NCBI RefSeq assembly: GCF_011299595.1
Contig: NZ_CP049867.1
Span: 3,348,001 to 3,412,000, forward strand
Source of the DNA: Nocardioides sp. HDW12B
GTDB lineage: Bacteria; Actinomycetota; Actinomycetes; Propionibacteriales; Nocardioidaceae
DNA: 64,000 nucleotides
Reading direction: 5' to 3'
In this document: positions 12,483 through 36,727 of the stretch, piece by piece
Position numbering within the stretch: position 1 is the stretch's first letter
Layout of the letters: every line of letters begins with the position of its first letter
Translations under genes and position numbers: made by a program
Notes under the pieces: model-generated
Told to the model about the DNA's origin: nothing
What the model saw: only the letters and a program-made list of their open reading frames with translations
The model's database searches: none

Positions 12483-12496
12483 TAGAACGCGTTCTA
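12483..12496. promoter_or_regulatory. KstR-type operator
   Basis: TAGAACGCGTTCTA fits the published KstR consensus TnnAACnnGTTnnA at every defined position and is part of a perfect 18-base palindrome (12481-12498). It abuts the start of the KstD-like flavoprotein gene on the minus strand, where binding would block transcription. No kstR gene is in the window. Confidence 0.72.
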
Positions 12497-12538: not shown

Positions 12539-12587
12539 CTTGTGCGGTGGGTTGTGCCCGCTCGGCCGTCTCAAGCCACCGCACAGG
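12539..12587 (-). repeat. REP-like palindrome, upstream copy
   Basis: The sequence starts CTTGTGCGGTGGGTTGTG and ends CTCAAGCCACCGCACAGG. It is the reverse complement, with a few differences, of the copies at 13619-13663 and 13947-13995. GCGGTGGGTTG and CAAGCCACCGC form the stem. It lies between the flavoprotein promoter and the Vsr-like gene, in the opposite orientation to the copy that ends that gene. Confidence 0.82.
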
Positions 12588-12683
12588 GCGGCCCCGGGCC
12601 CCGCGCCCTCGGATCCACCGAGTTCTCCACAGGCTGTGGCGCCGCCCTCCCCCCGGAGCCTGTCCGAGGCCGAGGGTGGTGCG

Positions 12684-13631
12684 ATGCACCCCCTCCTGGA
12701 CCGCCTCCTCGCCGAGCAGGACGGCGTCGTCAGCCGCGATCAGGCCCTGACCGCCGGGGTCCGTGGGGCCGAGATGCGCCGCCTGCTCTCGCGTCGTGAG
12801 CTCGTCGCCGTCCACCGCGGGGTGTACGTCAACCACACCGGAGAGCCGACGTGGTCCCAGCGTGCGTGGGCGGGCGTGCTGGCGACCTGGCCGTCCGCCC
12901 TGTCGCACACCTCGGCCCTGCGAGCCGCGGAGGGCCCCGGCAGCACCCGGAAGCAGGACGTCATCGAGGTCGCGGTCGATCGCGATCGCCACGTCGCCGG
13001 TCGCGCCGGGCTGACCCTGCACCGTTCGGCCCACCTGGAGGAGCGTGTCCAGTGGCACCTCGGTCCGCCCCGGGTGCGCTACCACGACGCCGTTCTCGAC
13101 GTCGCCGCAGCCGCGCGCAGCGAGCGGGACGCCCTGGCCGAGCTGGCCCGGGGCGTGCAGTCCCGTCGCACCACCGCTGCCCGGATGAGGGAGGCACTCG
13201 ACGAGCGGCTCCGGACGACGCGCGGACGGTGGATGGCCGAGGTCCTGTGCGACGTGGCGGCCGGGACGTGCTCGGTCCTCGAGCACGCGTACCTCCGCGA
13301 CGTCGAGCGGGCGCACGGGCTGGTGCCCGCACGTCGCCAGGTGAGGGACCGGATCGGCTCCCACGTGATCTACCGCGACGTGGAGTACCACGTCGGCCTC
13401 GTCGTCGAGCTCGACGGCCACCTCCACCACTCCTCGCTGCTGGCGCGCGAGCTCGACATGGACCGGGACCTGCTCTCGGCCGTCGCCGGCAAGGACAGCG
13501 TCCGCGTGGGGTGGGGCCAGGTGTGGGACCGGCCGTGCTGGACCGCCGGCTGCGTCGCTGCGCTCCTCGTCGACCGGGGATGGGACGGTCGAGCCCACCC
13601 CTGCGGGAAGCCCGCCTGCGCGGTGGGTTGA
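12684..13631 (+). CDS. Orphan AbiEi-like HTH plus Vsr/DUF559-type nuclease-fold protein
   Basis: A 315-residue protein. Residues 1-50 (LLAEQDGVVSRDQALTAGV, then LSRRELVAVHRGVYV) match the winged-helix N-terminal domain of AbiEi-type type IV antitoxins. The C-terminal part, from E200 through YRDVEYHVGLVVELDGHLHH (D232, E242, D244, H248, H249) to a final VGWGQVWDRP strand, matches the Vsr-like PD-(D/E)xK fold of DUF559 proteins. No AbiEii nucleotidyltransferase lies next to it. The last codons and the TGA are inside a palindromic repeat, and an inverted copy lies upstream. The ATG at 12684 is chosen because the nearby GAGGGTGG resembles a ribosome site and family similarity starts there. Biological role unknown. 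Confidence 0.78.
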   Translation: MHPLLDRLLAEQDGVVSRDQALTAGVRGAEMRRLLSRRELVAVHRGVYVNHTGEPTWSQRAWAGVLATWPSALSHTSALRAAEGPGSTRKQDVIEVAVDRDRHVAGRAGLTLHRSAHLEERVQWHLGPPRVRYHDAVLDVAAAARSERDALAELARGVQSRRTTAARMREALDERLRTTRGRWMAEVLCDVAAGTCSVLEHAYLRDVERAHGLVPARRQVRDRIGSHVIYRDVEYHVGLVVELDGHLHHSSLLARELDMDRDLLSAVAGKDSVRVGWGQVWDRPCWTAGCVAALLVDRGWDGRAHPCGKPACAVG

Positions 13632-13663
13632 GACGGCCCAGCGGTCACAACCCACCGCACAAG
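13619..13663 (+). repeat. REP-like palindrome overlapping the stop codon
   Basis: GCGGTGGGTTGAGAC (13619-13633) and GTCACAACCCACCGC (13644-13658) pair over 15 positions with one mismatch around a 9-base loop (GGCCCAGCG). The TGA of the Vsr-like gene (13629-13631) lies inside the left arm. The hairpin could also terminate transcription. Confidence 0.85.
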
Positions 13664-13701
13664 CAGGCACGAACGGACATCGAGCCCGACCCCCCGTTTG
13701 C

Positions 13702-13800
13702 CATGGGACCCCGGGACGGCGTGACCGGCCCACGCCGGACCGCACCACGCCCGCCTGTCATGGGGCCCCGGGACGGCGTCGACGGCCCCACGTCGGACGG
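13702..13800 (+). repeat. Two tandem ~40-base units
   Basis: Units beginning CATGGGACCCCGGGACGGCG (13702) and CATGGGGCCCCGGGACGGCG (13759) each end near CCCACGNCGGAC. A related block starts at 624. They fill part of the 435-base gene-free gap between the Vsr-like gene and the monooxygenase. The rest of the gap holds the palindrome copies and no supported gene. Confidence 0.6.
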
Positions 13801-13946
13801 TGCGACGCCCGGGCGCTCACGAGGCGTGGCGTCACGTCGCACGACGCGACCACCGACCGCGCCACCGGACGACACGGCGAGGCCCGGCGCGTCGTACCGG
13901 CCGACGCGGACCAGCCACCCCCGACCAGCCACCCCGGCCCGACCTC

Positions 13947-13995
13947 CTTGCGCGGTGGGTTGAGACGGCCCAGCGGTCACAACCCACCGCACAAG
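13947..13995 (+). repeat. REP-like palindrome, downstream copy
   Basis: CTTGCGCGGTGGGTTGAGAC leads the left arm and CAACCCACCGCACAAG closes the right. The 40-base core from GCGGTGGGTT to ACCCACCGCA is identical to the copy at 13619-13663 and in the same orientation, 328 bases away. CTTG/CAAG extends the stem. Confidence 0.85.
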
Positions 13996-36454: not shown

Positions 36455-36642
36455 GAGCAGCAGGACGCCGGGTCGGGCGGGGTCGCCAGCGGCCGGGTGC
36501 CCGGTCGGGCACTCAGGAGGCGTGGCCGCCTCGTCGCCGGACGCCACCGAGCAGCAGGACCCCGGGTCGGGCGGGGTCGCCAGCGGCCGGGTGCCCGGTC
36601 GGGCACTCAGGAGGCGTGGCCGCCTCGTCGCCGGACGCCACC
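36455..36642 (+). repeat. Two tandem 94-base repeats
   Basis: Units from GAGCAGCAGGAC at 36455 and 36549 are nearly identical over 94 bases (one clear change, GCCGGG against CCCGGG), each containing GGTCGCCAGCGGCCGGGTGC and AGGAGGCGTGGCCGCC. They fill most of the 295-base gap between tmk and topA. No gene is apparent. Confidence 0.85.
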
Positions 36643-36652
36643 GGGCAGCGGG

Positions 36653-36727
36653 CCACCGGGCGACACGGCGACGCCCGGCCGGACACCCGGCCGCACTGGC
36701 GACCCCGCCCGACCCGGCACCCGGCAC
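36653..36727 (-). repeat. Inverted, diverged third copy of the 94-base repeat
   Basis: On the minus strand this reads GCCGGGTCGGGCGGGGTCGC then CAGTGCGGCCGGGTGTCC, matching the first half of the 94-base units with small changes. It therefore pairs with them as a large inverted repeat just before the topA stop. Confidence 0.6.

What the first reader, a model, noticed from the sequence alone, without database searches (positions are those of the whole stretch)
12539..13995. Vsr/AbiEi-like gene bracketed by inverted palindromic repeats
An orphan gene combining an AbiEi-type HTH with a DUF559/Vsr-like nuclease fold is preceded by one palindrome copy and ends inside an inverted one, which provides its stop codon; a third identical copy lies 328 bases further on. 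REP-associated transposases (RAYT) show this kind of bond between a nuclease gene and its palindromes. This could be a palindrome-processing or mobility element not based on a transposase.
Basis: partly seen in the sequence, partly recalled or inferred. Interest (0 to 1): 0.75.

Follow-up and report, generated by a model that had tools for sequence, protein, structure and literature searches.

The report
Nuclease gene with its own palindromes
A family of bacterial DNA-cutting enzymes, each usually bracketed by and matched to its own short palindrome that is also sprinkled elsewhere in the genome, looks like an unrecognised counterpart of a known repeat-and-enzyme system, built on an unrelated enzyme.

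Summary
The window gene (12684-13631) encodes an AbiEi-type DNA-reading module fused to a DUF559/Vsr-like nuclease. It lies between ~47-bp palindromes; its stop codon is inside the second copy. Most homologues fetched have the same layout with a different palindrome each: upstream and downstream flanks match in 56 of 77, 23 of 33 and 51 of 82 loci (three sets), against 0 of 190 distant flank pairs. Solo copies are found mainly in genomes holding the cognate gene. At many syntenic loci both copies change together. Protein and palindrome co-vary: helix-turn-helix with the inner half-site, AbiEi C-domain with the outer; a weak nuclease signal did not replicate. Residue 32 with base 6 ranked first of 6358 pairs in a 21-locus validation set. 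AbiEi antitoxins bind paired 23-bp inverted repeats, much the same geometry. The host genome has no RAYT-type transposase match. Best reading: a REP/RAYT-like repeat system built independently on an AbiEi-DUF559 nuclease. Recognition is well supported; cutting and repeat spread are inferred. Ten open-access literature searches showed no description of it.

The parts
12541..12587 (-). Palindrome copy 1 (upstream, inverted relative to copies 2 and 3)
   Evidence: D1, I1, I2, I6; ends 96 bp before the start codon
12623..12634 (+). Leader motif TTCTCCACAGGC (family consensus GTTNTCCACAGG, DnaA-box-like by recall) between copy 1 and the gene
   Evidence: TCCACAG core (either strand) upstream in 91 of 111 loci vs 2 of 440 control windows; also upstream of 3 of 3 canonical DUF559 genes that lack matching palindromes
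12684..13631 (+). Gene: AbiEi-like wHTH (about residues 1-55), AbiEi-like C-domain (about 56-190), DUF559/Vsr-like nuclease (about 191-298), C-terminal GW..C....C tail; stop TGA 13629-13631
   Evidence: E200, D232, E242, D244, H249 and D258 invariant in 24 diverse members and kept in 32 or 33 of the 33 members of A2; domain limits approximate
13617..13663 (+). Palindrome copy 2 (downstream; contains the gene's stop codon)
13949..13995 (+). Palindrome copy 3, 47/47 identical to copy 2; the identity stops at the palindrome ends

Best explanation
This is a two-part repeat system that works like REP/RAYT but is built on an unrelated enzyme. Part one is a protein with an AbiEi-type DNA-reading module (wHTH plus AbiEi C-domain) and a DUF559/Vsr-like nuclease. 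Part two is a ~45-47 bp palindrome made of two ~22-23 bp half-sites, with copies before and after the gene and solo copies elsewhere in the same genome. Two protein molecules bind the two arms: the wHTH reads the inner half of each arm and the C-domain the outer half (inferred from covariation and the AbiEi precedent). The nuclease then nicks or cuts at or near the palindrome. Repair of that break copies the palindrome to new places, homogenises the copies and keeps the pair around the gene (inferred). SHOWN: bracketing, gene-specific pairing, dispersal associated with gene presence, co-variation, an empty site for the unit in two relatives. INFERRED: binding as two molecules, cleavage, repair-driven spread.
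For: Flanks: own score >=20 in 56 of 77 vs 29 of 1925 swapped pairs and 0 of 76 far flanks; second set, 30 loci outside the family plus 3 named ones, 23 of 33 vs 28 of 1056 and 0 of 33; third set from new genomes of one genus 51 of 82 vs 105 of 1640 (swaps probably raised by orthologues) and 0 of 81. Solo copies: 18 elements, 12 with at least one, 56 solo places in the cognate genome, 4 matches in non-cognate genomes (truncated list). A covariance model of the palindromes gave median 12.5 matches in 20 genomes with the gene vs 1.0 in 20 without, p 5e-6. A three-copy cluster in G092 is absent by eye at the matching gene end of 7 of 7 relatives read. Up and down half-sites 0.813 identical within a locus vs 0.432 between loci. 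Partial Mantel: inner half follows wHTH (0.29), outer half follows AbiEi-C (0.30); replicated 0.23 and 0.11. Residue 32-base 6 ranked 1 of 6358 and residue 100-base 18 ranked 10 in validation. PMC7319586 (passages): AbiEi binds two 23-bp inverted repeats 3 bp apart; charged residues of both domains matter for binding. Window unit absent in G001 and G002.
Against: No cleavage or binding was measured. 21 of 77, 10 of 33 and 31 of 82 loci lack a matching pair at score 20; some keep only one copy, and the upstream copy is lost in L029, L062 and L071 against their orthologues. Copy numbers are low (0 to a few tens of sites per genome, against >100 usual for REPs, PMC2817692 abstract), so spread is slow or mostly past; 6 of 18 elements had no solo copy found. 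No target-site duplication was seen. Genomes without a close homologue are not free of model matches (11 of 20, up to 11 matches). Covariation pairs 114-17, 103-15 and 103-16 did not replicate at p<0.05, and the 8-locus out-of-family set confirmed only 114-17. A weak nuclease-domain signal with the inner half-site (0.11, 2 of 200) was seen in discovery and not in replication. Within-locus identity exceeded orthologous identity in 9 of 15 syntenic pairs, with 1 tie and 5 the other way. The AlphaFold model is poor (pLDDT 59.7).
Confidence: 0.6

Rival explanations
1. Autoregulatory operator and small regulon: the AbiEi-type module represses its own promoter through the upstream palindrome, and the other copies are further operators; the nuclease domain does something else.
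For: AbiEi antitoxins autoregulate by binding 23-bp inverted repeats (PMC7319586 passages). The upstream copy lies next to a conserved leader motif. Covariation with the reading domains is equally expected.
Against: The downstream copy is found more often than the upstream one (67 vs 57 of 78, and 69 vs 50 of 82) and overlaps the stop codon in 79 of 136 loci. Of 22 solo sites with crude gene calling, 9 lie between convergent genes, 9 between tandem genes, 0 between divergent genes, 4 unclear. The one solo cluster tested is lineage-specific.
Confidence: 0.2
2. The palindromes are ordinary transcription terminators or mRNA-stabilising hairpins that happen to bracket a gene.
For: They form stable hairpins and many solo copies sit just after genes.
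Against: A terminator would not need to match the copy before the promoter, differ from homologue to homologue, or co-vary with DNA-reading residues.
Confidence: 0.05
3. The palindromes are MITE-like debris or end sequences of an ordinary transposon, and the gene is only cargo.
For: Dispersed short repeats, an empty site for the whole unit and several broken gene copies.
Against: No transposase domain in the window protein at E<=1. No Y1 transposase match in the genome, while the same search rings in 5 of 14 control genomes. Palindrome sequence follows the protein. Other transposase families were not searched genome-wide.
Confidence: 0.08
4. A defence or toxin-antitoxin module: the AbiEi part acts as antitoxin or the nuclease attacks invaders.
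For: Two PADLOC AbiEi models each hit 31 of 33 members.
Against: No AbiEii-like partner among the four neighbouring genes examined: FAD-binding, luciferase-like, FMN reductase, multicopper oxidase. Defence alone does not explain matched palindromes.
Confidence: 0.07

Closest known systems
REP sequences and REP-associated tyrosine transposases (RAYTs)
   Same: One gene delimited by a palindrome pair, cognate palindromes dispersed in the same genome, flanking repeats changing at conserved genomic positions (PMC2817692, passages).
   Different: No HUH/Y1 transposase domain; the protein is AbiEi wHTH plus DUF559. Palindromes are longer (~45-47 bp, two ~22-23 bp half-sites) and far fewer.
AbiEi antitoxin of type IV toxin-antitoxin systems and its operator
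   Same: Two-domain DNA-reading module; binding site of two 23-bp inverted repeats close together (PMC7319586, passages).
   Different: Extra nuclease domain, no adjacent toxin gene in the window, sites on both sides of the gene and dispersed.
Canonical actinobacterial AbiEi-DUF559-type proteins (Pfam PF04480)
   Same: Similar length and order, same active-site pattern in the C-terminal domain, same TCCACAG leader motif; their N-terminal part was judged AbiEi-like by eye only (the Pfam scan failed).
   Different: 0 of 3 examined have matching palindromes in their flanks (best scores 10.5-14.5).
Vsr-like (EDxHD) homing endonucleases
   Same: Nuclease class tied to mobility (EDxHD family named in the listing; its Vsr relation is recalled).
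   Different: Not known to be bracketed by cognate dispersed palindromes (recalled); insertion into a cleaved allele was not tested here.

Membership tests
RAYT/REP system | HUH (Y1_Tnp, PF01797) transposase | tested here: not met
   No Pfam hit to it at E<=1 in the window protein; 0 matches at E<=0.001 in the whole genome
RAYT/REP system | Gene delimited by a palindrome pair | tested here: met
RAYT/REP system | Cognate palindromes dispersed in the genome | tested here: met
   12 of 18 elements have at least one solo copy; low copy number
RAYT/REP system | GT(A/G)G head at one end of the palindrome | not tested
   Arms were pooled, so an asymmetric head could not be seen
AbiE type IV toxin-antitoxin | AbiEi-like antitoxin fold | tested here: met
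   By sequence profile: Pfam AbiEi_4 in 25 of 33, PADLOC AbiEi in 31 of 33 members
AbiE type IV toxin-antitoxin | Adjacent AbiEii nucleotidyltransferase toxin gene | tested here: not met
   Four window neighbours are unrelated enzymes; neighbours of other loci were not annotated
DUF559 / Vsr-like nuclease superfamily | Homology over the nuclease domain with its active-site residues | tested here: met
   hhalign 97.6%, E 4e-12 against 3 canonical DUF559 proteins; E200, D232, E242, D244, H249, D258 invariant in 24 members, kept in 32-33 of 33 in A2; Pfam hits in single members are weak or absent
DUF559 / Vsr-like nuclease superfamily | Nuclease activity | not testable with these tools
   needs biochemistry
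Insertion sequence / transposon | Target-site duplications and precise empty site | tested here: inconclusive
   Whole unit absent in G001 and G002, but the junction is too diverged for a base-level boundary

The most novel reading that the evidence does not exclude
Actinobacteria hold a second, independently evolved REP-like system: a TA-type operator and its reader were captured by a Vsr-like nuclease and became a self-maintaining, slowly spreading palindrome family. Protein and palindrome carry a readable residue-to-base recognition code (residues 28 and 32 for the inner half-site, residue 100 for the outer), so specificity drifts freely and each element forms its own repeat family.
Probability: 0.55. 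Interest if true: 0.9.

Novelty: categorically new. Interest (0 to 1): 0.85.

Why it matters
REP/RAYT was, to my knowledge, the only well-described case of short dispersed palindromes kept by a dedicated nuclease. An independent case on an unrelated enzyme would show that such partnerships evolve repeatedly. It would give many hypothetical or 'AbiEi/DUF559' actinobacterial proteins a function, and account for a class of intergenic palindromes. The protein-DNA covariation makes the recognition code directly testable: one residue, one base.

Tried and rejected
Whole-genome download was not available, so palindrome counts rest on capped searches with truncated lists. A structure model from 4 sequences was too poor for fold search (pLDDT 59.7), so no fold search was run. 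A PDB sequence search with the profile found nothing at E<=1. An out-of-family covariation check had only 8 non-redundant loci and was replaced by a larger new set. RNA-level constraint: one search shows full pairing, but the 41 palindromes were chosen for palindromicity, so I draw nothing from it. A plasmid or phage home found no support: no plasmid match, one 33% match in the phage collection, both at E<=1e-5; IMG/VR was not searched. The simple idea that GCGGTGGGTTGNGAC itself marks DUF559 genes was rejected: each homologue has its own arms. The DnaA-box-like motif as part of the palindrome unit was rejected: it is present before palindrome-less DUF559 genes and absent within 250 bases of 20 of 20 single-site solo loci; of the two solo sites in L092 one has it 214 bases away. 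The two papers that hold both 'DUF559' and 'palindrom' were opened at those words: one names DUF559 in a prophage gene list and CRISPR, the other matches DUF5593; neither bears on this.

Full report
WHAT IS THERE. The window is G000:C1:3348001-3412000 of a 4.19-Mb chromosome. Its family is Nocardioidaceae: L192 from G536, a genome of the same family, encodes the same protein as L165 from Nocardioides immobilis (lineage). The gene runs from ATG 12684 to TGA 13629-13631. A 47-nt palindrome lies before it (12541-12587, inverted), across its stop codon (13617-13663) and further on (13949-13995); the last two are identical over 47 of 47 bases and differ immediately outside. In the whole genome the strict pattern occurs at four places, three of them here; looser matching adds one more.

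PARALOGUES SHOW THE RULE. The genome has two more homologues (50% and 45% identical). Each is bracketed by its own palindrome pair, unlike the window's and unlike each other.

HOMOLOGUES AT LARGE. Profile searches found the family in 54 of 120 genomes of the family at E<=1e-25, 150 of 394 of the class at E<=1e-20 and 117 of 157 of the genus of G092 at E<=1e-70. I fetched part of the listed matches. Flank test (local alignment of 400 bp upstream against 400 bp downstream, either orientation, score >=20). Set 1: 56 of 77 loci (78 fetched, L016 dropped for a short flank) vs 29 of 1925 randomly swapped flanks and 0 of 76 flanks about 1-1.4 kb away. Set 2, 30 loci from other families of the class (many from one family) plus L165, L166 and Mycobacterium hubeiense L167: 23 of 33 vs 28 of 1056 and 0 of 33; a few of these matches lie further from the gene, so they are not all the typical palindromes. 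Set 3, 82 loci of genomes not in sets 1 and 2 except that L192 is the same gene as L165: 51 of 82 vs 105 of 1640 and 0 of 81; swaps are probably higher there because orthologous loci share palindromes. At least one odd-centred palindrome with >=15 of 22 pairs is present in 73 of 78 and 77 of 82 loci, but only 10 of 33 in set 2, whose palindromes often have other geometry; control windows reach this in 43 of 696, 54 of 736 and 25 of 297. Three canonical DUF559 genes of the same order have no matching flanks (0 of 3).

ANATOMY. Among odd-centred palindromes the half-site read outward from the centre is mostly CACC read towards the centre (positions 4 to 1), then G14, G16, G17, G19, A22, with variable bases between (95 palindromes of 63 loci). 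The downstream copy overlaps the stop codon in 79 of 136 loci; in 49 the stop comes before it and in 8 the frame runs through.

DISPERSED COPIES. Joined palindromes of 18 elements were searched in 14 gene-bearing and 10 other genomes. I counted 56 solo places in the cognate genome and 4 matches in non-cognate ones; 12 of 18 elements had at least one solo copy; the list was truncated. Of the 10 other genomes (no match at 1e-25 with the first profile; at least four of them have distant homologues), 8 had no hit, G012 had two and G023 one. A covariance model built from 41 palindromes was run on 20 of the 117 genus genomes with the gene, on 20 listed without a match at 1e-70, and on G000. Median matches 12.5 vs 1.0; 19 of 20 and 11 of 20 have at least one; Mann-Whitney p 5e-6. 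Caveats: both strands are counted, gene-flanking copies are included, only 150 candidates per genome were scored, the model was trained on palindromes from some of these genomes, and one genome without the gene (G517, 84% complete) had 11. A three-copy cluster in G092 next to an aminopeptidase gene is absent, by eye, from the ~420 bp after the matching gene end in 7 of 7 relatives whose loci were returned. By crude gene calling, 22 solo sites were 9 convergent, 9 tandem, 0 divergent, 4 unclear, and none inside a called gene.

EMPTY SITE AND CONCERTED CHANGE. In G001 and G002, same genus, the two genes flanking the window element are adjacent with a short divergent promoter and no element. At syntenic orthologous loci with two copies each, identity between species at the same copy falls from 1.0 to 0.41 as the protein diverges, while identity between the two copies of one locus stays between 0.70 and 1.0 (mean 0.83). 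Within-locus exceeded between-species identity in 9 of 15 pairs with no locus reused, 1 tie (L165/L192, the same gene), 5 the other way; and in 6 of the 7 pairs least similar by protein. Loss of the upstream copy was seen in L071, L029 and L062 against their orthologues.

THE PROTEIN READS THE PALINDROME. Residues 10-180 match AbiEi models (two models each hit 31 of 33 members). The C-terminal third is a DUF559/Vsr-like nuclease by profile comparison, with E200, D232, E242, D244, H249 and D258 invariant in 24 diverse members and kept in 32 or 33 of 33 in A2. Up- and down-copy half-sites of one locus are 0.813 identical (56 loci) vs 0.432 between loci. Partial Mantel correlations in discovery (83 of 111 loci with such palindromes): inner half-site with wHTH 0.29 (0 of 200 permutations reach it), outer half-site with AbiEi C-domain 0.30 (0 of 200); for the outer half wHTH 0.004 and nuclease -0.03; for the inner half smaller signals remained for AbiEi-C (0.13, 6 of 200) and nuclease (0.11, 2 of 200). 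Replication in 77 loci of new genomes: wHTH-inner 0.23 (0 of 300), AbiEi-C-outer 0.11 (8 of 300), wHTH-outer 0.05 (48 of 300), the other three negative. Single pairs in discovery: residue 32 with bases 5 and 6, 114 with 17, 100 with 18. In 21 new loci under 62% identical to each other and to the discovery set, 32-6 ranked 1 of 6358 (p 0.0002), 100-18 ranked 10 (p 0.0014), 32-5 ranked 19 (p 0.03) and 28-8 ranked 260 (p 0.04); 114-17, 103-15 and 103-16 were not significant. Permutations do not remove phylogeny, so the ranks matter more than the p-values. Passages of PMC7319586 state that AbiEi binds two 23-bp inverted repeats 3 bp apart and that charged side chains in both domains are vital for binding: much the same geometry and division of labour.

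WHAT IT IS. I read this as a REP-like system: a palindrome family and its own nuclease, with the DNA-reading module of a toxin-antitoxin repressor. It works like RAYT/REP, but it is not a member: no HUH domain in the protein and no Y1 transposase match in the genome. Cutting and copying are inferred. The strongest rival is an autoregulatory operator with extra sites. It explains binding but not the downstream copies, the convergent intergenic solo sites or the lineage-specific cluster.

NOVELTY. Ten searches of open-access full text, seen as listings, showed no paper linking DUF559 or AbiEi proteins to dispersed palindromes; the two that hold both words were opened at those words and are unrelated. 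PMC2817692 and PMC3733652 were read as passages and do not hold the word actinobacteri-. Subscription papers were not searched. I call it categorically new because the enzyme and its way of reading DNA are unrelated to RAYT; a reader who takes 'palindrome family plus own nuclease' as one kind could call it a new variant.

CHANGES AT CHECKING. Elements with a solo copy corrected from 13 to 12 of 18; the nuclease-domain statement, the leader-motif control and several counts made more exact.

Noticed in passing
window 12623-12634 and about 69 bp upstream of most homologues: A conserved GTTNTCCACAGG motif (DnaA-box-like by recall): its TCCACAG core precedes 91 of 111 genes vs 2 of 440 control windows, and also the palindrome-less canonical DUF559 genes (3 of 3); possibly a promoter or operator of the whole AbiEi-DUF559 family.
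   Followed up: partly
window 12483-12496: Inverted repeat TAGAACGCGTTCTA in the divergent promoter between the FAD-binding oxidoreductase and luciferase-like genes, conserved as TAGAACGTGTTCTA in G001 and G002; looks like a repressor operator.
   Followed up: no
window 13803-13888: About 80 bp similar (83% and 80%) to G000:1239068-1239153 and to window 36600-36679; another small repeat family.
   Followed up: no
window 13693-13731 and 13750-13788: A 39-nt direct repeat at 82% identity between palindrome copies 2 and 3.
   Followed up: no
L016 (G003:C51): A distant homologue (E 2e-28) with a different palindrome that has at least 13 solo copies in its genome, suggesting the principle extends beyond this subfamily.
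   Followed up: partly
L086 957-1136 (G092): Palindromes in tandem with a repeated ~51-bp unit beside a tRNA-like sequence (by eye); pairs 95 bp apart start to start occur at two other G092 sites.
   Followed up: partly
G032:C1:3976268-3977150, G084:C3:747338-748165, G066:C1:778824-779751: Homologues split into two open pieces, as if decaying.
   Followed up: no
MT835975.1:8491-9408: A 33%-identical, nearly full-length homologue in a 14-kb record labelled bacteriophage from human faeces.
   Followed up: no
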